From Haliclystus octoradiatus (lineage: Eukaryota; Cnidaria; Staurozoa; Stauromedusae; Haliclystidae), in contig OU744453.1 in NCBI GenBank assembly GCA_916610825.1, forward strand, positions 16,557,807 to 16,621,806: a stretch of 64,000 nucleotides of DNA. The letters run 5' to 3'. Shown in pieces: positions 15,841 through 56,540 of the stretch. The translations under genes and the position numbers were made by a program. Under the pieces are notes generated by a model. The model ran no database searches, was not told the DNA's origin, and was given only the letters and a program-made list of their open reading frames with translations. Position 1 is the stretch's first letter. Each line of letters begins with the position of its first letter.

Positions 15841-15879
15841 CGTCTATGTATATTTTCTTTTTTCTTGTTCTATATCTTA

Positions 15880-16729: not shown

Positions 16730-16739
16730 GCCTTAGGCT

Positions 16740-17609: not shown

Positions 17610-17726
17610 GCCTTAATCCACCATCGTTACAAATCTCGCTTAATTTTTGTTGAATGTGCCAAAGGAACATACTGCAGCGATCAGTTGCAAACGAACATCG
17701 ATTACAAGCAGACATATTAAATAAAT

Positions 17727-22742: not shown

Positions 22743-25700
22743 TTATGAGTTTTTGCAAAAGCAAAATTTTCTTAAAAATGGTTGATCTTTCATTACACAT
22801 AACGATTGATCACCATATTTATTTAATCGACTAATATTCGGATCTACAAAAGCCTTTTTATTAATAACATAAATAGTACCTTCAAATATTCCATTAGATT
22901 CAGTTGTTTGTATAACAACTTCAAATGTTATCATCATTTTATTTGAATTCCATAATGAATTATGGAAAAATTCTTCAGGATGATTCGTTGGAGTTTCTCG
23001 TTCTCGTATATGTAGTAACCTTTTTAATTTTAAAATCGAACACAATTCACTGCTATTTAATAATTCGTTTATATAACGTATCAATTGTTCAGCAATAGCT
23101 ATTGCTTCTTTTGTATATTTTGATATTTCTTTGAATCCGGCACACGGACAAAAATGTCGTGCAACACCAATATCGCGACATGTTCGATTTACTTTCTCGT
23201 TAATTCGAGTTAATAAGCTTTGTCCGTATCTTCCACGTTCAACCTTTGGATAATTTATTAAATGTTTTAATGTTGGATACAAATCAAAATGCGATGTCAA
23301 CACATGGGAATTATGTTGCAAATTTGTTAACATATTATTGTCTTGATTCAAAAACCATTTTGGTAAAGATAATGCAACATAAGGCATACGTTCTTCTAGT
23401 TGACCTTGTAAAGTCTGACGATACGCATCAATTCGATTGCCATGGTCTCCCATAATAAATAAAGCTGTACGATTTAAATATCCACGATCACGAAATGTTT
23501 CTAAAAAATTCGCAATTGAATCATCTCCTAATTGTATATAATGAGCATCGTTATGTGCTAATCTCGATATCAAAGCAAGCCCAAATTTTGGTATGTGTTC
23601 ATCATATGTTTCAAACATACTAGTTATATAATCAAGATTAATTTGATGTGATGCTTGATTACCAATGCATCTTCTACAACCAGTACTGACGTCATCCGCT
23701 GCCAACCAAAAATGACGCGAATAATGATCGGTAGGCGGGTGTTTAAAACCTTGTTGTTCATAATTAAATGTTCCTTCATCTTCGGATAATAAAGTTGTAT
23801 ATCCATGCTGTTTTAAATAATTATATAAAAAAGGCCACTTATCAACTGGTTTTCCGTCATCATCACCTTTATTTGCATTGGGTAATTCATGAATTAAATG
23901 ATCTGTTAAAATGGCGGCAAGCTGTGCAGCGGTACCATCGCCAACAATTGATTGACCATTAAATACAGTTGTCTCTGATATATTCCTTTTTGAAAAACTA
24001 TCAATAACTTTCAGAGTTCGTGGCACGGAACGTTTAAAATTGGCATTTGATTGAGAATCAAATAATAAAATTAGTATATCTAATTTTTTATTCTCAGATT
24101 TGTCCTTGTTACTAAATTTTAGATTTGCGTTTGGCTTTGTATATGCTAGGAATTCAGTGACGTTCTCGTGTTCAAATTCCAGGTTTAATCGATAGAAATC
24201 TTGAGTGATATTCATTGCATAATCGATATCTGAAATGTAGCAAAATCAATCTATCATATCTTGGCTAGTTAATCTCTATTCTCAATATCCTGGTTCAAGC
24301 CAACATGGGGCTAGGAGCTGGCCAGGAGATACTCCAATACTTCTTTACATGGGCGTATCTTTTGAGAGTCTTGCTAACATTATTGCTGGAAATATATACA
24401 CTAGTTTGAGAGGGATAGGAAATTTGCTTTAAGCGGTCTGAAAATGTTGAATTTGGCAGGAACTCGGATCACGTGATCTTAACCTGTCACAGCCTTGTGA
24501 AGGTCGGCTCATCGCCCAAGAGATTTTACTTTACCCTTTTACATGTCGCCATGGCAGAAGATGACGAACTGTGTGTTTTTATTCTTTCGTGTATAGGTGG
24601 TTTTTCGCATTTATATATTATATATTAATATCTTCGTAATTCTTGATTGTTGATCCAATCGCAGTGGTATAGTGCAATGTCAGTAAATGACAGAGCTGTA
24701 GATAAATAAATAGAGTCAGTAAATGACTACACATTTTTTCTGTTACTCAGAGTTTCAAGCTTCATGCGATCTTCAGACAGAGACACTGAACCGTGAAACT
24801 CTGAGTAACAGAAAAAGTGTGTAGACATTGACTCTTTTTATTTATTATATATCTTACACAGCTCGAAGTACACAAGCCACATTTAATATTGTCATTGGTT
24901 TTAATGCAAAGAGATTACAAACTCTATTGAAATTTTAAAACCTATATATATTATGTACAATTTAAAAATTTCATGCTCTTATAATTGGCTAGAGATATTG
25001 AGATTACCAATAATTACAAATAATATTTATCAAAATCTACTTGGTGATAAGTTTGGTACAAAATAACAACACAACTAAGTTTGCACAACGTTTCGACTGA
25101 TTAACTTCAGCCATTCTCAAGTGAATGATTTTTTATTAATAATTAAGATATATATATAGATATACATGAAAATTGTTTGCCCCTTGAGGGTAAAGTACAT
25201 CATGAAGTATATTTACAATATGATATCGATATCAGCGACAATAGTAACTATGGTAACTAGCCTAGATATATTTCTAATCCTTGGAGGAAATGCTGTATCA
25301 TGAAATGCATTCAGTTATTTGAAAACTTTGGCTCGGATGGAATCGCCTTGGACGTTTAATGTTGGTTTCAATTCTTGAATTGCCAGCATTTCATTCACGA
25401 AACAATCGAATTTATTTTTGCATATTTTATGAATTTCAAATGTTTTTCAAATTCATCAGTAGATATGCTGATTTCTTGACGGACGTGTGTACCAAGGTTA
25501 CCTTTGTTGTGTTCATCTATGCGTTCATATAAGTGCCAGCATGTTTAGCCGACATAAATCTGCTTCGCACTGACCACATTTAAAATGAAATATGACGCAT
25601 TGTTGGGTTAACAAATCTGGCTTCTCCTCACGGGTAAGCAAGTCGTCGTTGACCTTCTTACTTTTAAAAATAGTGTTAAAATTTACACTTATTTTACAAT

Positions 25701-28344: not shown

Positions 28345-28452
28345 CTTCCCGTTGAGGTAAAATAAATTCTATAACCAACAAAACAAATATATATACATTC
28401 GAACTTGCTTATATCCCCCCTCTGGTATGGCTGAAAAGCGGAACATTAAGCG

Positions 28453-29224
28453 ACCTGCGTAGTCCTCCCCCCCACACCTCTTCAAATTTTGTCCAACTAA
28501 TATCATAAATACTTTGATCAGTAGTTGATCAGTTGTGATCAGGTGTTTTTAAGACTGATCTAACAAAAGCGTTACAGTTATTAACGATTTTCTTGTGGGG
28601 GGGCAGGACTACGCCAGTCCCCCCCCCCCCACCTCACCAAATTCGAAAATTTACATATCAAAAGTTTGATCACGCTGTCATAAGTACTGATCAGGCATTT
28701 ATATTGCTGATCAAATTACGATCAACGAAATATTTGCGTTTTAGGCTCAATTTATAGCGTAGTCCTGGTCCCCCACCACCCCACTTAACCACGCCCAATT
28801 TCGAAAATTTTGATGTCAAAAGTTTGATCACGATGTGATCAGTCCTGATCAGACTATAGCTAAACTGATCAATTGAAGATCAAAGAGATATTCACGTTCC
28901 ACGTTACAAAATTACCGTAGTCCTGGCCCCCCACCCCCTCCAACCACGCCCAATTTTGAAAATTTTCATATCAAAAGTTTGATCACGATGTGATCAGTAC
29001 TTATGACAGCGTGATAAAACTTTTGATATATAAATTTTCGAATTTGGTGAGGTGGGGGGGCTGGCGTAGTCCTGCCCCCCACAACAAAATCGTCAATAAC
29101 TGTAACGCTTTTGTTTGATCAGTCTTAAAAACACCTGATCACAACTGATCAACTGCTGATCAAAGTATTTATGATATTTTGTACAAAATTTGAAGAGGTG
29201 GGGGAGGGGCAGGACTACGCAGCT
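28453..29224. mobile_element. 772-bp TIR element rich in TGATCA
   Basis: Inverted ends (ACCTGCGTAGTCCTCCCC and the complement of GGGGCAGGACTACGCAGCT) extend about 240 bp inward. A perfect 9-bp duplication, CATTAAGCG, flanks it (28444-28452 and 29225-29233). The interior has some 20 TGATCA or GATCA motifs and several C-runs next to CGTAGTCCTG. No coding frame. It lies 109 bp upstream of the DUF229 start. Confidence 0.85.
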
Positions 29225-29234
29225 CATTAAGCGA

Positions 29235-31112: not shown

Positions 31113-34100
31113 TTAATTAACTTTGCATAAGGCATTTAGATCAACAGTGTTCAATTTTGATTTGAAGGAAATTAATGATTTGGAGGTTACCACGCTCTCT
31201 GGTAAACTGTTCCACCATGGAATTACTCGATTGATAAATTGGTATTTGCTGATATTTAGCCTACCGGATACATTTGTCAGTTGTAACTTTAAGGAGTTAC
31301 CTCGCATTGAATATTTAGTTTTATTGAATTTACAAAATTCTTCTAAATGTAAATCTACTAGATTATTAATAATTTTAAACATCATTATCAGATCGCTTTT
31401 GATTCTCCTTAATTCCAAAGAATCAATATTAAGATACTTCAAACGAGTTTGATATGTTTGACCGTAAATGTGTTTGATGTGGCATACATGCCTGATAAAT
31501 GTTCTTTGAACCTTTTCAATGCTAATAATATCTTTAATTAAATATGGTGACCATACAGGAGACACTGATTCTAAAAGCGGTCTCACGTACACACTGTATG
31601 CTTTCATTAAAACATCAGCATCTCTACTGGAGAAACATTTTCTTATTAGGAATGACCTAGACTTGGCCTTTGCAGTAATCATAGCGCAATGAGCTGAAGG
31701 CTTGAGGTCGGTAGTGAATACAACTCCCAGGTCTTTTATTCTATTTACTGTTCTCAGTTCTTTTTCTTCCAAGTTGTAAATCTGTTGCTGAACGTTGACA
31801 TTTCCAAAGGAAAATACGCAACATTTGTGAAAAGCTAGACGTAACTGCCATGTTTGCGCCCATGTAACAACTTTATCTAATGATCTCTGTAGATTTAGAT
31901 TTGACTCTGATCTTGTAGAAAAGATTTTTGCGTCGTCTGCGAACAATTTGATATGACATTCGTCCTCAAGGCAACTTACAATGTCATTAATAAATATAAT
32001 AAACAATAGAGGGCCAAGTACGGAGCCCTGAGGTACACCACTGTCAACATTTAAAGAATTAGAATAGACATTTTCAATACAAACGGATTGTGTGCGACCA
32101 GATAAAAATGATGATATCCATTTGATGAGCTCGAATTGTATACCATATGCGTTGAGCTTGATAACTAGCTTATTGTGCGACACGGTATCAAAAGCTTTAT
32201 TAAAGTCCAGATAGATTGTATCAGTTAATAATTTATTGTTTATTGCTTTAGACCAAATGTTAAGAGTAGATAACAGTTGTGTGCATGTCGAGCGTCGTTC
32301 TAAAAATCCGTGCTGCTCTCTGGTGAGAAGGCCATGTTTCAAAAAATACTGTTTCATTTGTTTTGAGATAATCGATTCCATCACCTTGCATGTTACACAA
32401 GTCAACGAAACCGGGCGATAGTTTTGACATAATGAGGATTTTCCTGTTTTAAAGATTGGAATTACAAATGCTGTTTTCCATATAGATGGCAGTTTACCAG
32501 ACTGCATAGACGATTCAAATAATATGGATAAAGGTAAAGTAATATCGTTAGCAATAGACTTGAGAAAGATAGCTGGATATCCATCAGGAGATGCAGACGC
32601 TTTATTTGGTAAGGCAAGTAACTCCTTAAGAATATCCTTTTGAGAGAAATTGATATATGACAAAGATGTAGTACTAATATTGACCTGTTGCAAAAATTCA
32701 GGATTGTTCCCATCATCCTGGGTAAAGACAGTAGCAAAATAATTATTAAAAAGTTCAACTTTATCACTGATATCAGTTACCTTTTCTCCTATTTCATTTT
32801 GTACAGCAGGTATCGAAGGATGAGATTGTAGTTTACTATTTACAAATGAATAAAATCGGGAAAGAGAAACTTCCTCCAGAAGACTTTTTTCACGTTGAAT
32901 ATTGAATTCTTTTACTGCTTTCTCATACTCTTTCGATGCATTTTTAAAATCGGTATTTGATACGACAGAATTCCTGTAAGCCAGGCGTTTCCTTAGAGCA
33001 AGAGAGCGAATTGTCTTTGGATACTTAAATTTTCTATTCTTAGTCAAAGGAACAAAGTTATGAATACAGTAATCAAATATTTCAGAAATGATACTCCAAA
33101 AAGATTGAACATCACCATGGCAACTTTTCGATAAATGTATCCAGTTTATATCTTTCAAAATCATTGAAATATTATAATAGTCTGCTTTCCTGAAATTTCG
33201 CTTAGCATGATTAACTTTAGAATATGATGATGTAGGGATTTGAACGGAAAATTCTACAGATTTGTGATCACATGTGTCTGTAAAAGGTTCAACAATTTCA
33301 TGCTCGGTAATTAAAGCTGGCTCAGACGTTAAAAGAAGGTCCAAAATGTTATTCAATCGTGTAGGACTTGTTATTATTTGTTTTAGGTTATTTCTTGTGA
33401 CAGCGTCAACAAAGACATCATGACAGTTGCCCCCGTAACTAAGAGGAATGCCCCATTCAATAGATGGGTAATTAAAATCTCCAATGTAAAAACAAGGGAA
33501 AACACACTGTGAACAAAAATCAAAAAAGGAACCGATGATCTCTGTATCAATAATAGAAATAGCTTTTGAAGGTGGGTTGTAAGAACATGCCATTCGATAT
33601 TTTTGATGAGCTGACAATCTTATGTCAATAACCAAACTCTCAAGATTGTCAAACTTCGACGGTAATTCTAACATCGCATAACGAATGTTCTCCTTAATAA
33701 AAATAATAACACCTCCACCAATTGCATTTACTCTATCTCTTCGGACAACAGAATATCCGGAATTTGAGACTAGTAAGGAATCAGGGACTGTCAATGATAG
33801 CCATGTTTCTGTTATGAATATTATATCGTATGTGTTAGAGGTTAGGATTACCTCAAGCTGATTTAGTTTATTTAATAGTGATCTTGCATTAAAATAAAGA
33901 CATTTTAATTGTTCCGTTGAGTCTGTGTTGGCAATCTGTTGGAGAGGAGCATCATCAAGTGTTGTAGCTGAGCCTCCATTCGGGCCAGGCGTTCTTCGTG
34001 GGGGAGCGGGGGAGGTCTCTGGATGTATAAAAAATGCTGTTGTGGTTGTTGACTTAGTTGTTGAGGTAACCTGTGCTGAGCATTGATGACGTTTGTAATA

Positions 34101-34241
34101 GGCACCGGAGCGATCGGATTTACAGGTAGTTGTTGTTGAGGGTTCAGATTTGACTGATAATTGCCGGGATAATGGTCTTGTTTGCGTGCAACTCTTGATG
34201 TATGTTTTAAATGCATGTGAACGCATGTACTGTCGTAGCAC
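31113..34241 (-). CDS. LINE ORF2: endonuclease and reverse transcriptase
   Basis: Translated from the first in-frame ATG the frame has 1042 codons, but recognisable protein starts near residue 112 (LKCLYFNARSL, 33908). The APE-type endonuclease has FITETWL, GDFNYPSIEW and DTCDHKSVEF. The reverse transcriptase has NYRPVSLTCVTCKVME, QHGFLERRST, DFNKAFDTVSH, GVPQGSVLGPLLF and the catalytic FADDAKIF. All key residues are present and there is no internal stop, so it may be functional. It nicks target DNA and copies the element RNA at the nick. The upstream 111 residues overlap ORF1 and look like a shadow frame. How ORF2 is started is unclear (see findings). Confidence 0.96.
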   Translation of the reverse strand: MLRQYMRSHAFKTYIKSCTQTRPLSRQLSVKSEPSTTTTCKSDRSGAYYKRHQCSAQVTSTTKSTTTTAFFIHPETSPAPPRRTPGPNGGSATTLDDAPLQQIANTDSTEQLKCLYFNARSLLNKLNQLEVILTSNTYDIIFITETWLSLTVPDSLLVSNSGYSVVRRDRVNAIGGGVIIFIKENIRYAMLELPSKFDNLESLVIDIRLSAHQKYRMACSYNPPSKAISIIDTEIIGSFFDFCSQCVFPCFYIGDFNYPSIEWGIPLSYGGNCHDVFVDAVTRNNLKQIITSPTRLNNILDLLLTSEPALITEHEIVEPFTDTCDHKSVEFSVQIPTSSYSKVNHAKRNFRKADYYNISMILKDINWIHLSKSCHGDVQSFWSIISEIFDYCIHNFVPLTKNRKFKYPKTIRSLALRKRLAYRNSVVSNTDFKNASKEYEKAVKEFNIQREKSLLEEVSLSRFYSFVNSKLQSHPSIPAVQNEIGEKVTDISDKVELFNNYFATVFTQDDGNNPEFLQQVNISTTSLSYINFSQKDILKELLALPNKASASPDGYPAIFLKSIANDITLPLSILFESSMQSGKLPSIWKTAFVIPIFKTGKSSLCQNYRPVSLTCVTCKVMESIISKQMKQYFLKHGLLTREQHGFLERRSTCTQLLSTLNIWSKAINNKLLTDTIYLDFNKAFDTVSHNKLVIKLNAYGIQFELIKWISSFLSGRTQSVCIENVYSNSLNVDSGVPQGSVLGPLLFIIFINDIVSCLEDECHIKLFADDAKIFSTRSESNLNLQRSLDKVVTWAQTWQLRLAFHKCCVFSFGNVNVQQQIYNLEEKELRTVNRIKDLGVVFTTDLKPSAHCAMITAKAKSRSFLIRKCFSSRDADVLMKAYSVYVRPLLESVSPVWSPYLIKDIISIEKVQRTFIRHVCHIKHIYGQTYQTRLKYLNIDSLELRRIKSDLIMMFKIINNLVDLHLEEFCKFNKTKYSMRGNSLKLQLTNVSGRLNISKYQFINRVIPWWNSLPESVVTSKSLISFKSKLNTVDLNALCKVN

Positions 34242-34993
34242 ACTCTAGAATTGTACGAGGAAGGACAGATAAACATGTGAAAACGAGGGCAATCATTTTG
34301 GTTAAGTACACAACCACCATGGAATCTACCGTTTTTCAAATGACGAGAACATACTTTTGGATGATGCCACTTACAACCCCCATTTTTCTTCCCAGTAAGA
34401 CCATATTTACATATACCTTTTACCAGGTCTTGACATAATATCGTTGAGGAAGTAGTTCTTTCCTCAAGCTCGTTAGGTATTGAAGACATTGAATGGCTGG
34501 AATGATTAGGATCTGTGAATGTTAAATCATCATTGTTATCATTTTGATTGTTATCCGATTCAACCGCATTTTGATTGACTGATGGCGACATGTCTGGCGA
34601 TACATTGCAATATCCAGTTGATGTTGGTTCCGGTATATTGTTTCTGAGGTTTGAATGGCCGGCGGGAAAAACCGCATGCTCATCAGAAGGAACAGTAAAA
34701 TTATTTTCGAAATTTTCTCCTACTAAATAATATTTTTCATATAAATGCATACATAAGCCAACTAATTCAATTTTCTTTGCCTTCATCAATTTCACTTTAG
34801 CATTCACGACATTTTCTGATTTTAAGACATTAATAAATTTCAGATTTAAATCCATAATTTGATTTGATGTCATGTCCTCAATGACTTCTACATTTGGATT
34901 AATTGTCTCTTCAGGATCTTTTAAAGTTGATAAACCACCAATAGATAAATGTCCCATACTGTTTTGTTGATGAGAACTATCATCCAGTGACAT
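33905..34993 (-). CDS. LINE ORF1: Cys/His zinc-finger RNA-binding protein
   Basis: A 362-residue protein starting at an ATG. The middle has clustered Cys/His fingers (residues about 187-265: CQDLVKGICKYGLTGKKNG, CKWHHPKVCSRH, CVLNQNDCPRFH, CYDSTCVHMH). The C-terminus is Gln/Pro-rich with a short amphipathic helix (ERLARMEAQLQHLMMLL) that may form a coiled coil. This is the usual makeup of ORF1 in invertebrate CR1-like LINEs, where it binds the element RNA. The stop (33905) meets the first residues of the ORF2 endonuclease. Confidence 0.88.
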   Translation of the reverse strand: MSLDDSSHQQNSMGHLSIGGLSTLKDPEETINPNVEVIEDMTSNQIMDLNLKFINVLKSENVVNAKVKLMKAKKIELVGLCMHLYEKYYLVGENFENNFTVPSDEHAVFPAGHSNLRNNIPEPTSTGYCNVSPDMSPSVNQNAVESDNNQNDNNDDLTFTDPNHSSHSMSSIPNELEERTTSSTILCQDLVKGICKYGLTGKKNGGCKWHHPKVCSRHLKNGRFHGGCVLNQNDCPRFHMFICPSSYNSRVCYDSTCVHMHLKHTSRVARKQDHYPGNYQSNLNPQQQLPVNPIAPVPITNVINAQHRLPQQLSQQPQQHFLYIQRPPPLPHEERLARMEAQLQHLMMLLSNRLPTQTQRNN

Positions 34994-37018: not shown

Positions 37019-37504
37019 CCATCACGGCCCTCATTTCCGTGCGGCGCTCCAGTAAGGGCCTAATAAAATTAAGGTTAAAAAGTGTGCCAGAAACCAAACG
37101 TTTGGTGTGCCCAATCACAGCACACCTTTGTATCACGTGAAGTTTTATCGAGCTGGTTGGTGAATAAAACACTAAAAATGTAAACAAACTTGCTTGAATC
37201 ATTTCCAAAGTATATATTTCGATCGTTTATTCTGTCATATTGTCAATTTTCAATTATATATTTACGGAGAAATGAAATTTTGAATCAGAGTAATGCTGTA
37301 TGCGGCAATCCTGACTTCTACGGTATCAAAATCGTGTTTACGTTTTAGGAATTTTAATTGGTGTGAACAACCCACCTTTCCGAAAACATTGACGCGCTTG
37401 TAGACATCACATGTCTGTCAGCTACAACCCATTTGCTGCTGAAAAGTACCTCGTTTTCAAGCTTTGTATGTTATTAATTATCCGTCCTCCGGTTATAGCT
37501 TGGA

Positions 37505-40195
37505 AAAAGCCGGCTTTTATGTTTTTCAACTTTAAATGTCTCTCATACAAAAACGGGCGATACAATTCATTTCATTTCTTAGTATGTCATAGTCAAACGT
37601 GTATCGAAGTGATTTAAAAAAACTAGATGAAAAATATCAAGTCTATATTAAGAAACAGCCATTTAAGTTGACCTAAGTGTGATTTCACGTCTTTTCAGAT
37701 TTTGAAAAAGGCCGGTTTTCTACTTTCTCAAGTTTAAATATTTCTCATACTAAAACGGGCGATACAATTCACTTCATTTCTTAGTATGTCATAGTCAAAC
37801 GTGTATCGAAGTGATTTAAAAAAACTAGATGGAAAAATATCAAGTCTATATTTAGAAACAGCCATTTAAGTTGACCTCGGTGTGATTTCACCTCTTTTCA
37901 GATTTTGAAAAAAGCCGGTTTTCTACTTTTTTTCACTTTAAATGTCTCTCATACTAAAACGGGCAATACAATTCATTTCATTTCTTAGTATGTTATAGTC
38001 AAACGTGTATCGAAGTGATTTTAAAAAACTAGATGGAAAAATATCAATTCTTTATTTAGAAACAGCCATTTAAGTTGACCTAGGTGTGATTTCACGTCTT
38101 CTTTTCAGATTTTGAAAAAAGCCGGTTTTTATGTTTTTCAACTTTAAATGTCTCTCATACTAAAACGGGAGATACAATTCACTTCATTTCTTAGTATGTC
38201 ATAGTCAAACGTGTATCGAAGTGGTTTAAAAAAGCTAGATAAAAAAATATCAAGTCTATATTTAGAAACAGCCATTTAAGTTGACCTCGGTGTGATTTCA
38301 CCTCTTTTCAGATTTTGAAAAAAGCCGGTTTTCTACTTTTTTTCACTTTAAATGTCTCTCATACTAAAACGGGCAATACAATTCATTTCATTTCTTAGTA
38401 TGTCATAGTCAAACGTGTATCGAAGTGATTTAAAAAAACTAGATGGAAAAATATCAAGTCTATATTTAGAAACAGCCATTTAAGTTGACCTAAGTGTGAT
38501 TTCACGTCTTTTCAGATTTTGAAAAAAGCCGGTTTTTATGTTTTTCAACTTTAAATGTCTCTCATACTAAAACGGGAGATACAATTCACTTCATTTCTTA
38601 GTATGTCATAGTCAAACGTGTATCGAAGTGATTTAAAAAAACTAGATAAAAAAATATCAAGTCTATATTTAGAAACAGCCATTTAAGTTGACCTCGGTGT
38701 GATTTCACCTCTTTTCAGATTTTGATAAAAGCCGGTTTTCTACTTTTTTTCACTTTAAATGTCTCTCATACTAAAACGGGCAATACAATTCATTTCATTT
38801 CTTAGTATGTCATAGTTAAACGTGTATCGAAGTGATTTAAAAAAACTAGATGGAAAAATATCAAGTCTATATTTAGAAACAGCCATTTAAGTTGACCTCG
38901 GTGTGATTTCACCTCTTTTCAGATTTTGAAAAAAGCCGGTTTTCTACTTTTTTTCACTTTAAATGTCTCTCATACTAAAACGGGCAATATAATTCATTTC
39001 ATTTCTTAGTATGTCATAGTCAAACGTGTATCGAAGTGATTTAACAAAACTAGATAAAAAAATATCAAGTCTATATTTAGAAACAGCCATTTAAGTTGAC
39101 CTAAGTGTGATTTCACGTCTTTTCAGATTTTGAAAAAAGCCGGTTTTTATGTTTTTCAACTTTAAATGTCTCTCATACTAAAACGAGAGATACAATTCAC
39201 TTCATTTCTTAGTATGTCATAGTCAAACGTGTATCGAAGTGATTTAAAAAGACTAGATAAAAAAATATCAAGTCTATATTTAGAAACAGCCATTTAAGTT
39301 GACCTCGGTGTGATTTCACCTCTTTTCAGATTTTGATAAAAGCCGGTTTTCTACTTTTTTTCACTTTAAATGTCTCTCATACTAAAACGGGCAATACAAT
39401 TCATTTCATTTCTTAGTATGTCATAGTTAAACGTGTATCGAAGTGATTTAAAAAAACTAGATGGAAAAATATCAAGTCTATATTTAGAAACAGCCATTTA
39501 AGTTGACCTCGGTGTGATTTCACCTCTTTTCAGATTTTGAAAAAAGCCGGTTTTCTACTTCCTCAAGTTTAAATATTTCTCATACAAAAACGGGCGATAC
39601 AATTCATTTCATTTCTTAGTATGTCATAGTCAAACGTGTATCGAAGTGATTTAAAAAAACTAGATGGAAAAATATCAAGTCTATATTTAAAAACAGCCAT
39701 TTAAGTTGACCTAAGTGGGATTTCACCTCTTTTCAGATTTTGAAAAAAGCCGGTTTTCTACTTTCTCAAGTTCAAATATTTCTCATACTAAAACGGGCGA
39801 TACAATTCACTTCATTTCTTAGTATCTCATAGTCAAACGTGTATCGAAGTGATTTAAAAAAACTAGATGAAAAAATATCAAGTCTATATTTAGAAACAGC
39901 CATTTAAGTTGACCTAGGTGTGATTTCACCTCTTTTCAGATTTTGAAAAAAGCCGGTTTTCTACTTTTTTTCACTTTAAATGTCTCTCATACTAAAACGG
40001 GCAATACAATTCATTTCATTTCTTAGTATGTCATAGTCAAACGTGTATCGAAGTGATTTAAAAAACCTAGACGAAAAATATCAAGTCTATATTTAGAAAC
40101 AGCCATTTAAGTTGACCTAAGTGTGATTTCACGTCTTTTCAGATTTTGAAAAAAGCCGGTTTTTATGTTTTTCCACTTTAAATGTCTCTCAAATT
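37505..40195 (+). repeat. 203-bp satellite array, left arm
   Basis: About 13 tandem units, marked by AAAAGCCGGTTTTCTAC every 202-207 bases (37711, 37914, 38121, 38323 and on to 40155). Two or three unit subtypes alternate: TTTTATGTTTTTCAACTTT against TTCTACTTTTTTTCACTTT. Confidence 0.95.
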
Positions 40196-40741
40196 AGGAC
40201 GATGTGTGCCGATGAACTGATACCACTCTGCATGGCTCTTACATGTGTATCGGATACAATTAGAAAGATTTTATGAGAACATATCTTGCATTTATTCAGA
40301 TACAGCCAGTTAACCGGATATTGGTGGTATGTTTGGGTTCTCAAAATGCCCATTTTTCAATTTCTTCAATTTCTAGTTCTTTCAAATGAGAACGAGGCTG
40401 GCAAATCATTAGATATCAGTAGATATAGTTCTTAGATGTATATCAAATTTAAATAAAAAGGTTCATGGTAGTACGCACGAAATGTTATCACACATACTTA
40501 GTGCCACTTACCATATCTTGCTTACTTCATTAAACTGTAGGTGTTGTTGATGTTTATTGTGCAATTTTGTGGGTGTCAGTACTGTGATAGATATATTGAT
40601 GGATATATTGCATGAAGTTGTGTAACATTCTTGGCACGTTTGATGAAATCTGATCTCTACGTGGTGGATGTTGCTTAACAATCCTAGCTTTAAGACCACT
40701 CACTCATTTATTTCTATCTGTCTGTCGGTGAAGACGTCAAA

Positions 40742-41647
40742 ATGAATATTTATGAGATACTCGTGATTATCTCGACCATTGAAAATACTTTGGCCTTTTT
40801 AAGGTCGAAAAAATTAATCAGAAGACAGCCACCGGACTGCCCTGATTGTGCCCTACCAATGAAGGAGTATAAAAGAGCAGATATTTCAGATGGATATACG
40901 TGGAGGTGCAGAACCCATAGAAACAGGAAGATTTCAATTCGTGATGGATCGTACTTCGCAAAGTCAAGATTAAAACTTGGGGAGCTCATTCATCTTATGC
41001 ATTTATGGTCAATGAACACACCTATACATACGCAAGTGGGGTATTCAACTACAAGTGAACGTTCAGTGATACAATGGAACTCTTACATGCGGGACATTTG
41101 TTCCCATGAGCTTCTGACGAATCCTATCATTTTGGGGGGGCCTGACAGAACCGTGGAAATTGACGAGTCCCTCATGTCTAAACGGAAATACCATAGAGGA
41201 CGATTAAGACGACAGGAATGGGTATTTGGTATGTATGAACGTGAACGAAAGATCGGTTTCTTTGAATATGTAACAGATCGTTCTGCACCGAGTCTGCTCC
41301 CAATAATTGCTCCAGGTACAAACATTGCTCCAGGTACCAAAATACATTCGGACGAATGGCAAGCTTACAACCAAATTAGCAATTTAAATGTATTACAACC
41401 TTTCACTCACGACACTGTAAACCACAGCGTCAATTTCGTAGATCCGATCACAGGATGTCATACAAATAATGTGGAGTGCTTTTGGAAAAATGCTAAGCGC
41501 AAAAAAGCATACATGTCAGGTACAACTAGAGCTATGTTACCAGGTCATTTAGATGAGTTCATGTGGCGAGGGATCTATGGCAGAACGCATGCACTTGCAT
41601 TCGAAAATGTCATAGATCAACTTGCTGCATGGTACCCAACTCCCTAA
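40742..41647 (+). CDS. Merlin transposase (IS1016/IS1595-like DDE)
   Basis: 301 residues, full length for Merlin. An N-terminal zinc-binding motif (Cys33, Cys36, Cys56, His59) is followed by a DDE core: Asp141 in VEIDESLMSKRK, Asp204 in IHSDEWQAY and Glu245 in HTNNVECFWKNAKRK. The enzyme would cut and join the element ends. One oddity is a six-residue tandem duplication just before the second Asp (IAPGTNIAPGTK) caused by an 18-bp repeat, which may affect activity. The ATG at 40742 follows the end of the inverted inner block. The stop sits at the palindrome centre, tail to tail with a decayed second copy. Confidence 0.95.
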   Translation: MNIYEILVIISTIENTLAFLRSKKLIRRQPPDCPDCALPMKEYKRADISDGYTWRCRTHRNRKISIRDGSYFAKSRLKLGELIHLMHLWSMNTPIHTQVGYSTTSERSVIQWNSYMRDICSHELLTNPIILGGPDRTVEIDESLMSKRKYHRGRLRRQEWVFGMYERERKIGFFEYVTDRSAPSLLPIIAPGTNIAPGTKIHSDEWQAYNQISNLNVLQPFTHDTVNHSVNFVDPITGCHTNNVECFWKNAKRKKAYMSGTTRAMLPGHLDEFMWRGIYGRTHALAFENVIDQLAAWYPTP

Positions 41648-42370
41648 AATGAACTGGTAATATAGCCCTATCGCCGGGCCTGGCTGGCATGTATCCTTTT
41701 TTGATCTCCATGCTATTTGTAGACAAATTTCTGTGGTTCGTGACATTTTTGTAATTCTGACCCATTATCCGAATGTATTTTTGGGGTTTGCCATTGGGAG
41801 TAGGCTCCGAAACCGATCTTTCGTTTGTTCATCCATTTCTGGCATTTTGATTATTTAATGATTATTGTATTTCCAATTAGACTGAATGGCATACTCTTTT
41901 TCCATGATTCTGTGTGACCTTTTCAAAATTATAAGATATTCAGGAGTTCATGGGTACCAAATCGTTGCTCTTATCAATCAATCAACATTATATACATAGA
42001 ATACATCCTTTTTCTATATTTTAGAGCTCCATATACATGTATTGATAAAACATTGTATTACTGAACGTTCTTGTATTAATTCACCATCAATTTCCACTTA
42101 CGTATGTATAAACCCAGTAACCCATATTTGTATAAGTATTGATGACTCGTCCCCATCAATAATTTTAACTTGACTTTGTGACGTATTGAACTATCGTGAA
42201 TTGAAATCTTCTTGTATATTAACCATTATGCACCTTCATGTATATCCGGAAGAAATATATGCAATTTTATACTCCTTCATTGGTAGGGCACAATCAGTGC
42301 AGTCCGGTGTCTTCTAATTAAATTTTTTGTCCTTAAAAAGGCCAAACTGTACGCATGTATATCAATGATT
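41648..42370 (-). pseudogene. Decayed inverted second Merlin transposase
   Basis: Read on the minus strand, blocks match the open gene in order: GGCCTTTTTAAGG and CCGGACTGC (42350-42310), CCTACCAATGAAGGAGTATA (42296-42277), GAAGATTTCAATTC (near 42210), GAACGTTCAGT (near 42065), CGAAAGATCGGTTTC (near 41820), AAAATACATTCGGA (near 41775) and TATATTACCAG (near 41660). Large gaps and frameshifts make it non-coding. Confidence 0.85.
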
Positions 42371-42764
42371 CAACAATTATATATATAAAGAAATAATATT
42401 GAATGATTTTTTTATCTCTTAACATCTATGCATGATAACCCATCTCTTGAATCTCAATACAACTGCATATTTGATCAAAAATGATACTCCATCTACTTTC
42501 ACAAACTTTTTTGAACTAAATCTAGCGATATCTGATAATTTCCCAGCCTCGTTCTCATTTGAAAGACGTACATGTCAGACAAAGTGAAGATTGGCATTTT
42601 GAAAACCCTGAAATACCCCCAATATCAACTTAAATGGCTGTATCTAAATAAATGCAAGATATGTTCTCATCAAATCTTTTTAATTGTATCCGATATCATG
42701 TAAGAGCCATGTAGAGTGGTATCAGGTCATCGGCACACATCGTCCTAATTTGAGAGACATTTAA

Positions 42765-43810
42765 AGTTGAAAAACATAAAATCCGGCTTTTTTCAAAATC
42801 TGAAAAGACGTGAAATCACACCTAGGTCAACTTAAATGGCTGTTTCTAAATATAGACTTGATATTTTTCCATCTAGTTTTTTTAAATCACTTCGATACAC
42901 GTTTGACTATGACATACTAAGAAATGAAATGAATTGTATTGCCCGTTTTAGTATGAGAGACATTTAAAGTGAAAAAAAGTAGAAAACCGGCTTTTTTCAA
43001 AATCTGAAAAGAGGTGAAATCACACCGAGGTCAACTTAAATGGCTGTTTCTAAATATAGACTTGATATTTTTCCATCTAGTTTTTTGAAATCACTTCGAT
43101 ACACGTTTGACTATGACATACTAAGAAATGAAATGAATTGTATCTCCCGTTTTAGTATGAGAGACATTTAAAGTGAAAAAAAGTAGAAAACCGGCTTTTT
43201 TCAAAATCTGAAAAGACGTGAAATCACACTTAGGTCAACTTAAATGGCTGTTTCTAAATATAGACTTGATATTTTTTCATCTAGTTTTTTTAAATCACTT
43301 CGATACACGTTTGACCATGACATACTAAGAAATGAAATGAATTGTATTGCCCGTTTTAGTATGAGAGACATTTAAAGTGAAAAAAAGTAGAAAACCGGCT
43401 TTTTTCAAAATCTGAAAAGAGGTGAAATCACACCGAGGTCAACTTAAATGGCTGTTTCTAAATATAGACTTGATATTTTTTTATCTAGTTTTTTTAAATC
43501 ACTTCGATACACGTTTGACTATGACATACTAAGAAATGAAATGAATTGTATTGCCCGTTTTAGTATGAAAGACATTTCAAGTGAAAAAAGTAGAAAACCG
43601 GCTTTTTTCAAAATCTGAAAAGAGGTGAAATCACACCGAGGTCAACTTAAATGGCTGTTTCTAAATATAGACTTGATATTTTTTCATCTAGTTTTTTTAA
43701 ATCACTTCGATACACGTTTGACTATGACATACTAAGAAATGAAATGAATTGTATCGCCCGTTTTTGTATGAGAGACATTTAAAGTTGAAAAACATAAAAA
43801 CCGGCTTTTT
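42765..43810 (-). repeat. 203-bp satellite array, right arm
   Basis: About five units of the same satellite as the left arm, in opposite orientation (CCGGCTTTTTTC at about 42782, 42987, 43190, 43395, 43597 and 43800). Confidence 0.95.
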
Positions 43811-44026
43811 TCAAGCTATAACCGGAGGACGGATAATTAATAACATACAAAGCTTGAAAACGAGTTACTTTTCAGCAGCAAATGGGTTGTAGCTGACAGA
43901 CATGTGATGTCTACAAGCGCGTCAATGTTTTCGGAAAGGTGGGTTGTTAACACCAATTAAAATTCCTAAAACGTAAACACGATTTTGATACCGTAGAAGT
44001 CAGGATTGCCAACGGACACGGAAGTG

Positions 44027-45739
44027 TATGGTGGCCCATCGTTGCCATAGCGTTTTTTTTTGAAAAACTTTTTACGCCATGGCCCATTGTTGCCATAGTA
44101 AAAAAAAATTTTACCACGTGGCCCATCGTTGCCATAGTCTAATATTTTTAAATGATGGCCCATCGTTGCCATAGTAAATTGTTTTACTTTTTCATAAACT
44201 AAATGTTTATTATTAAGTTATTTTTGTATTTAAAACGCTGTTCCATGTTGTGCATGTTTTGTCTTTGATTCCTTCTGTTGTATTTAGCTCTGTCAAATGC
44301 TGACATTGAGATTGAGCACTATTTCATATCTTTAATGTAATGTAATATGGTTACAATATAACTAAAATACATGGGAATGTGTAGTACAAGTTAAACAGAA
44401 GTATAGTAATTACATTTGACTACGGCTATGATATGGTTTATTTGGCTATACAATGTAAATGATGTATACACTTACGATCACTAATTATCGGGAGTCAAAG
44501 AATAATATGTAATTATAATTCTCGGGAGAGTTCTGAAATCATCGTCATCAATCATCATTATCTTACATTCGCAAATTCACGTTTGGATTTGGATATGTCC
44601 AACCTAAATATTTCAATAGTCTAGTTACAATTAATCAATTATATTGTTTCACAGGAAATAATAGTTCACATATACTTATGTCTTTTCAACAGGTCTAGGT
44701 CTAGCTATGACAGACTGTTAAAACAGTAGGGTGGAACTCCAGGCTCGAAAGGTTGTCAATATATCAATTTAAGATAATAAATCGAGTTGTTAAAGAAAAA
44801 TTGTTGTAGCTAGCTACGTTGAGCGCTGGCATAGCAAAAACTTTCCATTCATTTATTTGATTCATTTATTTGTTCAAAAGCACGCTGACTGAGAACCGCC
44901 ATATACCAGCATGCATTGTGGCATTGCCTTAACAACTATAGCATAACTAGAAAATAGAACCAATATTCTGAGCAACAATGTGGATTCTAGCCTATACAAT
45001 ATTGAGAGCTTAGCGGGTTAACAGCCATTAACTGTATGGCCTCTACACCCACAGCTAGTTTGCCCTAAAGTATAGACGCGCAACTAAAAATGTAACATGG
45101 TCGACATAAATATCAATTTCAAAGATGTGTGTTTTCCGCTTGGCCTACCTCTTGGGCTATCGGTTTCAATTTTATTAATAATATTGTTGATAATTTTAAT
45201 ATCCCACCTGTTGAAATAGTTGCAAGTATTTAAATAGGTATGGATATCTGCAGATTCTATCAAAAATTTATAGACGCTAATTGACTATTTGATGCTAATC
45301 TAACAAAAAATGTTGACTGTCTATTAGCTATTCTCCCAACTTTCAATGGAATTCTGGGCCTTTATGCTGTTTCTGTCTCAATTTTCGAGTTGTTTGCAAC
45401 ATTGTAGAATATATTATTATTGGCTATATTGTAATATATATATAAATATTGCTATATCCAATGGCTATAAAATAAGTTTCGGAAAATAAAACTTTATGAA
45501 AAAGTAAAACAATTTACTATGGCAACGATGGGCCATCATTTAAAAATATTATACTATGGCAACAATGGGCCACGTGGTAAATTTTTTTTTGCTATGGCAA
45601 CGATGGGCCATCATTTAAAAATATTAGACTATGGCAACGATGGGACACGTGGTAAAATTTTTTTTTACTATGGCAACAATGGGCCATGGCATAAAAATTT
45701 TTTCAAAAAAACACGCTATGGCAACGATGGGCCACCATA
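44027..45739. mobile_element. 1.7-kb TIR element with ATGGCAACGATGGGCC repeats
   Basis: Inverted ends TATGGTGGCCCATCGTTGCC match the complement of the right end GGCAACGATGGGCCACCATA. Each end region holds short tandem repeats of CTATGGCAACGATGGGCCA with AT-rich spacers (four on the left, six on the right). GAAGTG is duplicated at both flanks (44021-44026 and 45740-45745). The middle is non-coding. It begins 17 bases after the Merlin right end. Confidence 0.82.
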
Positions 45740-45959
45740 GAAGTGCTTACAATTTTCCAACGATGGCAATCGCTCCGTCAAAACATGAAGTTTTCTCCTT
45801 TTATTTTGTTTTCTACGCCCACAAAAGGCCTTCATAATGTTCATACAGTCCTTCGAGATAATGTACTATATTATTTATAATTCTGTTGCTCCAATTTGAT
45901 CCAAAATAATACCGTAAACTTGATGTTTTTAGTTTTCTTCGACAGTTTGTTTACAAAAT

Positions 45960-46200
45960 GTTGAAATTCAAAATAGCTGAATTGAGCAAATTTCAATTTC
46001 TGTTCACACCTCGTTGTATTGTTCTGCGATGGGCCGACCAACCAACACCTGGCTGTAACTCACATGACACCAAGGTGCGCTGTGATTGGAAACACCATAT
46101 TTTTGGTTTCTGGTACACCTTAAGGACCGTTTTGGTTTGCGTGATCCAAACACGGAAGTAAGCCGATCAAATTACTAGAACAGCATTCGAAAATCTTTCG
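45960..46200. repeat. Dispersed repeat related to 37065-37140 and 5850-5960
   Basis: CAATCACAGC and GTACCAGAAACCAAA blocks (46045-46125, complement) match 37080-37125. GTGTTTGGATCACGCAA also matches 5896-5912. Inverted homology thus continues beyond both Merlin borders. Confidence 0.55.
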
Positions 46201-48529
46201 AGTTTTACAATATGCTTTCCTTCAACAAAGTGCCTTATTCCATATTACATCTTTTGTAAACGTTCTTAGCAAATCACAAAACATTTCTTTGTAGTTTTTC
46301 TGCCATCGAAACACTCCTCGTGATATATTCGAATTACCAGATTTCATCGATATGAAAATTGAAAATCGATTTGATGATATCACAACGGGTGTTTAAAAAT
46401 GAGGTTTTGAAAAAAATGTATTTTTTCAAAACAATTATCGCCGGTCAATAATGCCCCTTTAATCCAACCTTCGTATTTTTTTTGTGTTTGGTCGAATTGG
46501 TACGGCGTAGCGTGAGCATCGCACCAAATGGCGTTTGAGCCACAAATTTGTCACCTGCTTTGAGTAAATTTATGCCAATTTTGAGATAAAATATTGATAT
46601 AATTTCATGTCTGCTATAGCTATTGATCCCGTGACTTTTGATATGAAATATTAACATGAAAATACAGCTAGAAGTCGATGTCTTACCTTCTGATTAAATA
46701 AGTTGACCATTGCACAGCGAATGTAAACATTTGCAATTCAACTTCTTCAATGGCTTTTTAGTACGGGGTCATAAAAACACTGTAGGATTTAGGACAATTT
46801 CTGGAACAGTTAATTTCTTAGACTAGCTATGAAACGCGTTGTGAAACGCGTGACTATAGGTAAACAGAAAATTCAACAGGCTGCATGGAGTCATGCGCAG
46901 TAGCACCCTGTCCCGTCTGATATTTTGGTCACATCTGAATTAAATCTGAATCTCGCACGATTGACTGTATTTCGGTTTGATTTGTATTTCAAACTCAACT
47001 TGACTTTGAGATTTCTGATGGCGGCCAGAAAAATGGCGGTCTTGTCCGAAAGTAACGAGATTAAAGTTTCAAAATAACAGCTATCGACAATAGTCATCGT
47101 CATATAATATAATTCGTGTGAATACGAAGTTATCATCCTAGTCACCTTAGAATTCCAGTACAGTTGATGTAATATTTATCTAGAGTAGCCCACGATACAT
47201 TTTTAAATATCTATGATTGAAAATTGGACAGGGTAGGGGAAGATAATTGAAAAATTAACATGAAGTATGGTGTAATCCAACTCAGCTTTGAATAGTAAGA
47301 TATGATAATATAAATATAAATATCAAAACATGAATAAACTATATGAGATAGGCTTGCTATTCTTTGTCTATAGACTACAGTCATAGCTCATAACCTTCCT
47401 TATGCTATAAGTCTTAGTCTTTAACATTAATTTGGAAAGTAAAGAAAGGAGCTCACTCAATCAAGTAAGGACTAAGGTAGTAACTGATGATACATATGCT
47501 TAGTGATCCACTGTCTATGATCTGATATAGTATTTATTAAATTGCAAAAAAGCTAACATTATTAATGAGCGACTATTATAAGGAAGAGCTTAAAGCTTTT
47601 AGGCTGCACTACACACAAGCACACACCACAGCCTTGTATACAGTATCTCAATTCAGTTGAAAACTAAAAATTATTGTTTTTAAAAAGAACTTATCTGAAA
47701 TAGTAAACAAACTGATCTATTTGTATTGTAGACTTTGCAACACTGAGCCAGAGTAAATATTTGTAATTTTTGTTTATAATCATAGAAATGTAGGCTACTT
47801 GCAGAACAAAATCCTCTGATAAAGTGTTCCACCGTGGATATAGCACAGTTAATAAATGGATGCTTAACAACTTGCAGAAACAGGATAATTGTGGCATTTG
47901 GGATGATTACTTTGTCATAATGCTTTACACCTTTACATGCTTACATATAATAATTATTAATTGATATGTATCAACATGTGTGTGTATGCATCAACATGAG
48001 ATACTTACACAACAAATAACTAATGGACAATCTACAAGATTATATGCTAAGCTAATTTTTGATTTATAAAGAGTAGGCCCCTACAAAGTTGAAAGAGACG
48101 GCATTCTGAGGTGATCAGTCAAGATAATTAAAATAAGCAACATCGGTAATCTTCATCAGGATGTCTCGTGATATTAAGCTACCTCCTAGAAAGTTATGTT
48201 AGACATACGGGAGGCTGAGAGCTCGACTGTACGCGGACATATGTTTTGTAGATTAAGCCTGGTAATCGGCAAAGAGAAATTTTAACATTTTAATATCAAA
48301 TATGCCCCTAACATGCTTTGGCAGAAATCATGAAACAATAGAGGGATTGTTTATATTTCGTGCAGGGCCTACTTCTGTGTGAGTACTCTTTACTAAAAAT
48401 ATCATACATTTATGAAAATTGATGTTCTTCAAGCAAATATCAAAATAATGAGTTGAAGTTTAGAAATTGATACAGTTGAAATATGTGTATAGCAGCCAGC
48501 TATGAGAGGAAGATAAACTGATCAATGTA

Positions 48530-51480: not shown

Positions 51481-52291
51481 ACATGTATATATGATAACCA
51501 TATAGACAGTGGTTCACTAAGTCTCACTATCATCAATTATTACCGCAGTCGATTGAGTGAGCTCCTTTCCTTACTTTCTTGATTAATGTAGGTTATAGAC
51601 TATGATTTAAAGGTAGGCTACTGCTAGCCTATGAGCAATGACTTTAGAAAATATAGGCTAGCCTATTAATTCTATATCTCCAATCTATTCATGTTTTGAT
51701 ATTATATTGATATTATCATATCTTACTATTCAAAGCTGAGTTAGATTACACCATATTTCATGTTAATTTTTCAAAGACCTTCCCTTACCCTGTCCAATAT
51801 TAGCTATTTAAAAATGCACCGTGTTCTGTCTCTGTTGGTTAAATCGTTGATAAGTAACAACGTAGACGAGCAAATGGTTGATAAATATTACATCAACTGT
51901 ACTGGAATTCTACGATGACTAGGATGATAACTTCGTATTCACACGAATTATATTATATAACGATGACTATTGTCGAAAGCTGTTATTTTGAAACTTTAAT
52001 CTCGTTACTTTCGGACAACACCGCCATTTTTCTGGCCGCCATCAGAAATCTCAAAGTCAAGTTGAGTTTGAAATACAAATCAAACCGAAGTACAGTCAAT
52101 CGTGCGAGATTCAGATTTAATTCAGATGTGGCCAAAATATCAGACGGGACAGGGTGCTACTGCGCATGACTCCATGCAGCCTGTTGAATTTTCTGTTTAC
52201 CGTGACGTGACTATAGGATTCGAATGCCCATGTTTTTTGACTCATGGTTACGTAAGTGACCTTGAGTCTATCCTGTCATGGAGGAAACGTT

Positions 52292-54515: not shown

Positions 54516-55076
54516 GTTTATTATTTTAACCACCCTAATGAGCCGTTCATAAATAGTTCGTAAACACATTATAAGAAGTCTACGAGCCATTAATGAATGG
54601 TTCATGAATAGTTCATGAACACACTGTAATCATTCATAAGCCATTAATGAACAGTTCATAAATAGTTCATAAACACATTATAAGAGGTTTACGAGCCATT
54701 AATGAACACCTTTCCTTGTAAGAAGTTCATGAGTCATTGATGAACATTTGATGAATAGGTTATGAACACATTTTAAGACGTTTATATGCCATTAATGAAC
54801 AGTTTATGAATTCATCTGAAAAAACATTGTTGACTAATCAAATTGCTAGGAGTCCTCGCATGATTTTGGAACAGTAGTTCATAAAGTGTTAATCCAAAGT
54901 TATGAAAAATGTGCCATTTCACGCTTATGATTTTCAATGAATCGATGATGAAATTCTGTGTACTGTGTATGAGCCTTTCATAATTAGTTTTTAAGTTCAT
55001 GAATTGCACATGGGTTGTTTTTGAGCTCTTGAACTATAAAAAAATTCAAAAACTTTGATGAGGTTTTGCAGGAGTT
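54515..55076. repeat. GTTCATGAAC element with tandem interior
   Basis: Starting near 54537, units of about 66 bp (GAGCCATTAATGAACAGTTC type) repeat four or five times, then the element ends with GGTTTTGCAGGAG at 55063-55075. Confidence 0.65.
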
Positions 55077-55603
55077 GTATCATTCCGGAATGAAGTTTGC
55101 CTTTATCAGAAGGAGTTATAGCACTTATACCACATTGAATGGCTTCTGTGGGTGGAACAAAGCAATTAATCTCACCTGAGAACTATGTTGAGCCCTCAAA
55201 TTAGACTAGGGACTGAGCCTTGAAGATGAGCTGTATTGAAATCGTATACATCAATCTTTTCTTCAACATTTCCACAGCGCAATGCCAAGTTACGTTCCCC
55301 TATAAACATAATGAGGAAACACGTACTATTTAGAAGAGAGACATTCCTTAGGTACTTATAAGCCTGAGTCGTCAAACCAATAATACAAAACAAATTATAT
55401 GTGACTCACATAATTTCTTGTGGATAGACCTGAAAATTAACAGAAATAGTTTATATGAATCTCATAAAATGATGTTATACAGCAGCATAGCTTCTAAGGT
55501 ATTTACCAGCAATTTCAAGTGAGCTTAAAATTCAAATGCTCACAAGTGAAATGATCTTCTGCCTGTAAGGAAGGAAGCACAAAGAGTACCATTCTATCAA
55601 ATA

Positions 55604-56540
55604 TCTCCTTGAAAAAGTATTTACATTCCTAAGACACCAACTTCTTCTCATATTCTTGTGCGAAAAGATTTACTTAATTCATAAACAGTTCATGAAAAGC
55701 TCTTTATTTTTACGGATGTTCATAAACTGTTTGAGGAACATCTAAACAGCTCCAAATCATGAATAGTTCATAAATGTTAAATAGTCTGTTTTTCATGAAC
55801 TGACTGTAAGGTATTTTTACAAGGGAATTAATATCTCCTTCAAGAAGTATTTACATTCCTAAGACGCCAACATCATCTGATATTTCCCTTCCCCTGCGAA
55901 AATATGTACTTAAATCATGAACAGTTCATTAAAAGTTATTCATTTTTACGAATGTTGATAAGCTGTTTCGGGAGCACCTTATTCATAATAAGTTTCAGTT
56001 CATGAATAGTTCATGAATGTTAAATAGCATATTTTTCATGAACTGATTGAAAGATATTTTCACGGAAAAACTAATATCTCATTGAAGAAGTATTTACATT
56101 CCTAAGACCCCAACATCTTCTCATATTCCCCTTCCCCTGCAAAAAGATTTACTGAAATCATGGACAGCTCATGAAAAGTTCTTTACTTTTACGAATGTTG
56201 ATGAACTGTCTCAGAAATACCTTATTCATAAAAAGTCCCAGTTCATGAAGAGTTCATGAATGTTAAGTAGCATGTTTTTCATGAACTGATTGTAAGATAT
56301 TTTCATAGGGAACTAATATCTCCTTGAAGAAGCATTTACATTCCTAAGTTACCAACATCTTCTCATATTCTCCTGCGAAAGGGATTTACATAGATCATGA
56401 ACAGTTAATGAAAATTTTTTCGTTTTACGAATTATGACGATCTGTGTCAGGAACACCTTATTCATAAAAAGTTCCAGTTATTTAATGTAAAATAGCATGT
56501 TTGCAATGAACTCATTGTCAGGTATTTTTACAATGGGTTG
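55604..56540. repeat. Four tandem units of about 235 bp built on TTCATGAA
   Basis: Each unit starts near TATCTCCTTGAAGAAGTATT (about 55604, 55831, 56070 and 56313) and contains an inner CCCCTGCGAAAA-like motif plus TTCATGAA palindromes. It looks like a palindrome element amplified as a satellite. Confidence 0.8.

What the first reader, a model, noticed from the sequence alone, without database searches (positions are those of the whole stretch)
37304..44010. Merlin transposon that is one giant imperfect palindrome with two transposase copies
Not just the ends but the whole element is an inverted repeat, down to the transposase gene. An open 301-codon gene in the left arm meets a decayed inverted copy tail to tail near 41647. 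Typical Merlin elements, as I know them, have short TIRs and one gene. This one may have formed by inverted duplication, and the open arm may still drive movement of single-arm derivatives.
Basis: partly seen in the sequence, partly recalled or inferred. Interest (0 to 1): 0.85.

Follow-up and report, generated by a model that had tools for sequence, protein, structure and literature searches.

The report
Foldback-type Merlin-like transposon with inverted transposase copy
This is a jumping gene whose two halves mirror each other, including one intact-looking and one ruined copy of the gene that moves it; similar mirror-image elements are known in fruit flies and maize, so it is an unusual variant and not a new kind of thing.

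Summary
At 37304-44010 lies an imperfect giant inverted repeat. Each arm has a 196-bp terminal domain, an array of 204-bp tandem units (13.2 left, 5.2 right), an edge segment and a transposase copy. The left transposase is open (301 codons, DDE_Tnp_IS1595, DDE residues shared with five plasmid relatives). The right copy is a broken remnant ending within a few bp of the left stop codon. The diagonal is not unbroken: 40446-40741 versus 42366-42506 does not exceed chance. So the gene copies separated long ago while the outer arms were kept alike, probably by conversion or recombination. Most likely the 5' half of a Merlin-like element was duplicated in inverted orientation, giving two 5'-type ends. 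Galileo and the maize Mu killer locus are close published parallels. Single-arm derivatives were not seen in the window and could not be sought elsewhere; no host genome was held. New variant of a known kind.

The parts
37304..37499 (+). Left terminal domain, begins 5'-GGCAATCC; 196 bp
   Evidence: 204/207 identical to the reverse complement of the right end; 2 differences in 196
37500..40191 (+). Left array of 204-bp tandem units (13.2 copies; three unit types read by eye)
40192..40447 (+). Left edge segment, shared with the right arm, in part a diverged array unit
   Evidence: 84.3% over 254 aligned sites, 2 gap events; (D5): 94 nt of the right-arm counterpart is 70-72% like the units
40448..40741 (.). 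Left spacer upstream of the gene with no detectable partner in the right arm
   Evidence: 75 of 300 shuffles score as well (tested 40446-40741)
40742..41647 (+). Open transposase gene, 301 codons; DDE residues read as D141, D204, E245; zinc-ribbon-like CxxC...CxxH near the N terminus (my reading)
41558..41647 (.). Unpaired core of the palindrome: last 29 codons plus stop of the left gene
41648..42346 (-). Decayed inverted transposase copy (stops in all three frames, many gaps, AT-shifted), covering about codons 17-272
42366..42496 (.). Right spacer, no detectable homology to the left spacer
   Evidence: tested 42366-42506
42497..42750 (-). Right edge segment
42751..43814 (-). Right array of 204-bp tandem units (5.2 copies)
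43815..44010 (-). Right terminal domain, ends GGATTGCC-3'
37295..37303 (.). Left flank GCTGTATGC, not matching the right flank (no target-site duplication)
44011..44019 (.). Right flank AACGGACAC, not matching the left flank

Best explanation
It is a foldback-type, Merlin-like DNA transposon. In an ancestor with the order 5' end, 204-bp array, transposase, the 5' half was duplicated in inverted orientation with the breakpoint at the end of the gene, so the original 3' end was lost and both ends are now 5'-type ends. The left transposase stayed open and the right one decayed. The terminal domains and arrays of the two arms were kept alike by conversion or recombination, between arms or with other copies, for instance during repair after excision. 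In principle the left-encoded DDE transposase cuts at the matching GG...CC ends and moves the whole palindrome by cut-and-paste. Shown: the anatomy, the intact DDE residues, and the contrast in divergence between outer and inner arms. Inferred: the single duplication, the homogenisation, any mobility, and any binding role for the arrays.
For: Both arms share the terminal domain, the outermost half-unit (Lout/Rout 98.1%, while Lout is 86-92% like the 16 full units) and the array/edge junction at 40190 / 42752, so the right arm is a copy of the same 5' end. The gene copies lie tail to tail with the breakpoint within a few bp of the left stop codon. Differences: 4/331 at the ends, 40/254 in the edge segment, 93/443 in the strictly aligned gene part (Fisher p=7e-20 ends versus gene, 1e-11 ends versus edge). 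Between-arm unit identity reaches 99.0%; within the left arm it ranges from 91.6 to 99.5%. Directional decay: 55 sites left GC/right AT versus 13 the other way. The DDE residues are identical in the window protein and all 5 IS1595 relatives that I aligned, and the C terminus ends about where L001 and L005 end (which residues form the triad is my reading of the family motif, not a call's answer). Parallels: Galileo shows ~210-bp tandem repeats in TIRs, inverted recruitment of internal sequence, and chimeric copies with unlike flanks (PMC3573991 passages); in Mu killer both TIRs derive from the transposase-side end, with two partial gene copies in inverted duplication (PMC3440606 abstract and passages).
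Against: No target-site duplication, so this locus was not made by one clean insertion, or it was rearranged later. 40446-40741 has no partner. The divergence does not rise evenly inward: with loose gaps, codons 1-57 match better (88.1%) than the adjoining edge stretch 40331-40445 (77.0%). Only one copy could be examined, so homogenisation, ancestral form and founding event are inferred. The terminal domain (37304-37480 tested) and one 204-bp unit share no motif above chance (233 and 285 of 300 mononucleotide shuffles score as well), so a transposase-binding role for the array has no sequence support here. The AT shift may partly reflect the coding gene's higher GC (0.41 against 0.34); the test did not correct for that.
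Confidence: 0.55

Rival explanations
1. Two separate copies of one Merlin-like family, lying in opposite orientation, were fused at this locus by a deletion or ectopic recombination that removed both 3' ends; the left half comes from a younger intact copy and the right half from an older decayed one.
For: Explains the lack of a target-site duplication directly; Galileo has twelve chimeric copies bounded by different 7-bp sequences (PMC3573991 passage); the left flank 37162-37303 shows no inverted homology to 45740-46040 above chance (225 of 500 strict and 51 of 500 loose shuffles score as well).
Against: An older decayed right half should also have decayed ends, but they differ from the left at only 4 of 331 sites, so conversion is still needed; a breakpoint within a few bp of the stop codon would be coincidence.
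Confidence: 0.3
2. Assembly artefact: the right arm, or the join between two loci, is a misassembly across highly similar repeats.
For: Units up to 99.5% alike are hard to assemble; missing target-site duplication; no reads available.
Against: A mirror artefact would give near-identical arms; here the arms differ in unit number and unit make-up, and the right one holds a decayed gene copy with 21 gap events over 443 aligned sites. A mis-join of two real loci is not excluded.
Confidence: 0.08
3. Stepwise TIR growth as in Galileo: the inverted repeat crept inward over several rounds of array expansion and recruitment of internal sequence, with no single inverted duplication.
For: The outer arms, edge segment and gene differ to different degrees; Galileo TIRs grow by tandem repeats and by recruiting neighbouring internal sequence (PMC3573991 passages).
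Against: Recruitment inward should make the gene part the youngest and most alike; here it is more diverged than the ends and the edge segment by the strict alignment (93/443 against 4/331 and 40/254).
Confidence: 0.07

Closest known systems
Merlin superfamily DNA transposons / IS1595 family (PMC8101967: abstract, outline, passages and part 1 of 2 of section 10)
   Same: DDE_Tnp_IS1595 transposase with DDE triad; ends begin 5'-GG; internal tandem repeats have been reported in some Merlins.
   Different: TIRs given there as 24-462 bp; here arms of 4.3 and 2.4 kb that include the gene; no 8-9 bp target-site duplication at this copy.
Galileo (P superfamily) and Foldback-like elements (PMC3573991 and PMC3688188, abstracts and passages)
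   Same: Long internally repetitive TIRs (~210-bp units in one subfamily), inverted recruitment of internal sequence, chimeric copies with unlike flanks.
   Different: Different transposase superfamily; recruited sequence comes from the F1/F2 spacers, and the Galileo copies with the longest TIRs lacked the transposase ORF, whereas here the gene itself is within the inverted repeat and one copy is open.
Mu killer, maize MuDR derivative (PMC3440606, abstract and passages)
   Same: Both ends derive from the transposase-side end; two transposase copies meet in an inverted duplication.
   Different: Mutator superfamily, both mudrA copies partial; here one copy is full length and the two are well diverged. 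Silencing untested here.
KolobokP composite-like transposons (PMC9587614, abstract and passages)
   Same: Animal DNA transposon with unusually long, duplicated terminal parts.
   Different: Its long terminal repeats are direct, not inverted.

Membership tests
Merlin superfamily | DDE_Tnp_IS1595 domain | tested here: met
   Pfam PF12762 3e-15, 57 bits, cutoff 27; NCBIfam IS1595 73 bits, just under its cutoff of 75
Merlin superfamily | DDE catalytic triad | tested here: met
   D141, D204, E245 invariant in the window protein and 5 of 5 plasmid relatives aligned; assignment of the triad to these residues is my reading
Merlin superfamily | TIRs beginning 5'-GG | tested here: met
   GGCAATCC...GGATTGCC; criterion from PMC8101967
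Merlin superfamily | 8- or 9-bp target-site duplication | tested here: not met
   GCTGTATGC versus AACGGACAC. I therefore call this copy Merlin-like and do not file it as a canonical Merlin insertion
Merlin superfamily | TIR length 24-462 bp (described range) | tested here: not met
   The inverted repeat continues through the arrays and edge segments; the terminal domain before the array is 196 bp and alone lies within the range
Foldback-like elements | Long, internally repetitive inverted terminal repeats | tested here: met
Foldback-like elements | Long-TIR form present as a repeated family in the genome | not testable with these tools
   No host genome held; no second copy in the window
Mu killer-type silencing locus | Both ends from the transposase-side end, inverted transposase duplication | tested here: met
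Mu killer-type silencing locus | Silences active family members through RNA from the inverted duplication | not testable with these tools
   No RNA data; 33 of 906 ORF bases but 2485 of 2692 left-array bases lie in exact matches of 21 nt or more to the other arm, so a hairpin would be good in the arrays and poor in the gene

The most novel reading that the evidence does not exclude
The palindrome is itself the propagating form of a Merlin-like family: a transposon with two 5' ends and one maintained gene, whose ends are kept matched by arm-to-arm conversion, and whose read-through transcripts fold into long hairpins from the arrays that feed host small-RNA silencing, so it carries both its own mover and its own brake.
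Probability: 0.12. Interest if true: 0.7.

Novelty: new variant of a known kind. Interest (0 to 1): 0.42.

Why it matters
If the arrangement recurs in its host, it shows foldback architecture in a Merlin/IS1595-type transposon too, with the transposase gene inside the inverted repeat while one copy stays open. It would give a natural case for testing how transposons keep two ends matched, how satellite-like arrays grow inside transposons, and whether inverted transposase copies silence their own family in animals, as proposed for Mu killer in maize.

Tried and rejected
Host genome search for other copies and single-arm forms: no genome held. Protein relatives by exact peptide patterns (reaches close relatives only): viral contigs none; genome contigs 3 pattern matches, none confirmed. 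PDB by sequence: none at E<=1. Phages by tblastn: none at E<=1e-5. Plasmids: 62 records at E<=1, 15 listed.

The TIR 20-mer has one exact match in IMG/VR (L006); apart from it, the best blastn match of the element to that contig is 15 bp at E 7.3 and the best transposase tblastn match is E 0.42, and its ORFs look to me like a phage's; judged chance. A 21-mer of the 204-bp unit: no match.

Shared motif between terminal domain and 204-bp unit, as expected if the units were extra transposase sites: none above chance; three shared 8-mers on one strand, no 9-mer.

Larger inverted duplication including the flanks: an 83-bp, 78% inverted pair lies outside (37079-37161 / 46041-46121; score 43 against a maximum of 17.5 in 300 mononucleotide shuffles), but the tested stretches between it and the element (51 and 225 of 500 shuffles as good) and outside it (134 of 200) do not exceed chance; not counted as part of the element. 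The 16 bp 44011-44026 were in the blastn but not in the alignments.

The left stop codon may derive from the antisense copy (by eye in the printout, about 13 of 18 bases ungapped); too weak to claim. Codon-position differences 36/23/39 at positions 1/2/3 (loose alignment): too weak to show selection.

Literature: searches. No title or abstract start in their listings describes a palindromic Merlin. The listings show 20 of 269 and 20 of 44 papers, one search shows 8 of 9; one search needed five of six terms and found nothing. Only open-licence PMC text is covered; Repbase entries and paper supplements were not seen.

Full report
What is there. The element runs from 37304 to 44010 (6,707 bp). 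Its ends are identical inverted repeats for the first 61 bp, with 204 of the first 207 positions identical; the repeat finder gives 331 nt at 99%. Inside the 196-bp terminal domain each arm carries a tandem array of a 204-bp unit: 13.2 copies on the left (37500-40191) and 5.2 on the right (42751-43814). Units fall by eye into three types, and both arms begin and end with the same type. Units of opposite arms are up to 99.0% identical; within the left arm the range is 91.6 to 99.5%.

Inner arms. Beyond the array both arms share an edge segment (84.3% over 254 aligned sites), then run into spacers (tested as 296 and 141 bp) with no homology above chance (75 of 300 shuffles as good), then share transposase sequence again. 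The left gene is open for 301 codons. The right remnant aligns at 79.0% over 443 aligned sites with 21 gap events (40789-41260 / 41809-42346), and in fragments down to 41557 / about 41647 (0 of 1000 shuffles for the block; one sub-block is reached by 2 of 1000 with strict gaps). The stretch holding the right copy has 12, 16 and 11 stops in its three frames. The last 29 codons plus stop of the left gene form an unpaired core of 90 bp. So 'tail to tail near 41647' is correct to within a few bases, but the mirror image has a hole of 296 against 141 bases, unequal arrays and a one-sided core.

The protein. Pfam DDE_Tnp_IS1595 (3e-15, above its cutoff); NCBIfam IS1595 at 73 bits, just below its cutoff of 75. 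I aligned it with five IS1595 transposases from plasmids (25-28% identity; three of the five annotated ORFs lack the N-terminal part). D141, D204 and E245 are among 13 invariant positions, and the C terminus ends about where L001 and L005 end. That these three are the catalytic triad is my reading of the family motif. The window protein has CxxC and CxxH near its N terminus, which I read as zinc-ribbon-like. [quoted passage not shown]

Timing. Differences between the arms by strict alignment: 4 of 331 at the ends, 40 of 254 in the edge segment, 93 of 443 in the gene (Fisher p=7e-20 ends versus gene). The rise is not even: by loose alignment, codons 1-57 match better than the adjoining edge stretch (88.1 against 77.0%), and loose figures are inflated. 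Substitutions in the gene are lopsided: 55 sites where the left has G/C and the right A/T, 13 the other way, consistent with decay of the right copy, though the gene's higher GC contributes and was not corrected for. If all parts had separated at one time under no constraint they should differ alike. Hence the outer arms have probably been homogenised or replaced since. This applies to every origin considered.

Insertion site. The flanking 9-mers GCTGTATGC and AACGGACAC do not match, and near matches to each elsewhere in the window are at chance level. The locus is therefore not a simple insertion preserved intact. In Galileo, twelve copies with unlike flanks and unlike TIRs were judged chimeric (PMC3573991, passages). 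Unlike flanks fit a chimera here, but the nearly identical ends do not show one; so the fusion rival keeps 0.3. The tested flank stretches are not inverted copies of each other.

Comparison. Merlins are described with TIRs of 24-462 bp, terminal GG and 8-9 bp target-site duplications, and with internal tandem repeats in some families (PMC8101967, passages). Galileo shows foldback architecture with ~210-bp units and inverted recruitment of internal sequence, but its longest-TIR copies lacked the transposase ORF. Mu killer has both ends from the transposase-side end and an inverted duplication of the transposase gene; it is the closest anatomical match I found. In Galileo, footprinting located one binding site near the end and its sequence led to further sites in the tandem repeats (PMC3688188, abstract and passages); I looked for a shared motif here and found none above chance.

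Verdict. Origin by inverted duplication is likely but not shown; mobility of the palindrome or of single arms is untested. Because the target-site duplication was tested and not met, I describe this copy as Merlin-like and do not file it as a canonical Merlin insertion. The host is not identified; a eukaryote is my inference from the non-LTR retrotransposon ORF in the window and from the transposon type; that no genome is held proves nothing alone.

Noticed in passing
44027-45739: A second foldback-like element directly beside the first: 152-nt ends at 97% made of 37-38 bp repeats around GGCCCATCGTTGCCATAG, no ORF of 150 aa or more, and a possible imperfect duplication GGAAGTGT / AGAAGTGC at its borders read by eye.
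   Followed up: partly
37079-37161 and 46041-46121: 83-bp inverted pair at 78% enclosing both elements; may be ends of an older element or dispersed repeats.
   Followed up: partly
31113-34993 (-): Non-LTR retrotransposon: endonuclease and reverse transcriptase ORF (RVT_1 1.1e-33) with an overlapping upstream ORF at 33905-34993.
   Followed up: partly
22743-24215 (-): 490-aa ORF matching DUF229 (7e-86) and Sulfatase in Pfam.
   Followed up: no
28452-29225: Self-complementary stretch (76%) holding 158-bp tandem repeats.
   Followed up: no
46859-47518 and 51502-52201: Long inverted pair, 81% over 711 columns, possibly another inverted-repeat element.
   Followed up: no
2583-2799, 7300-7374, 54536-54801, 55600-56479, 59708-59805: Scattered tandem arrays built on related words such as GTTCATGAAC, several similar to one another.
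   Followed up: no
15878-16735 and 16739-17615: Adjacent direct duplication, 92%.
   Followed up: no
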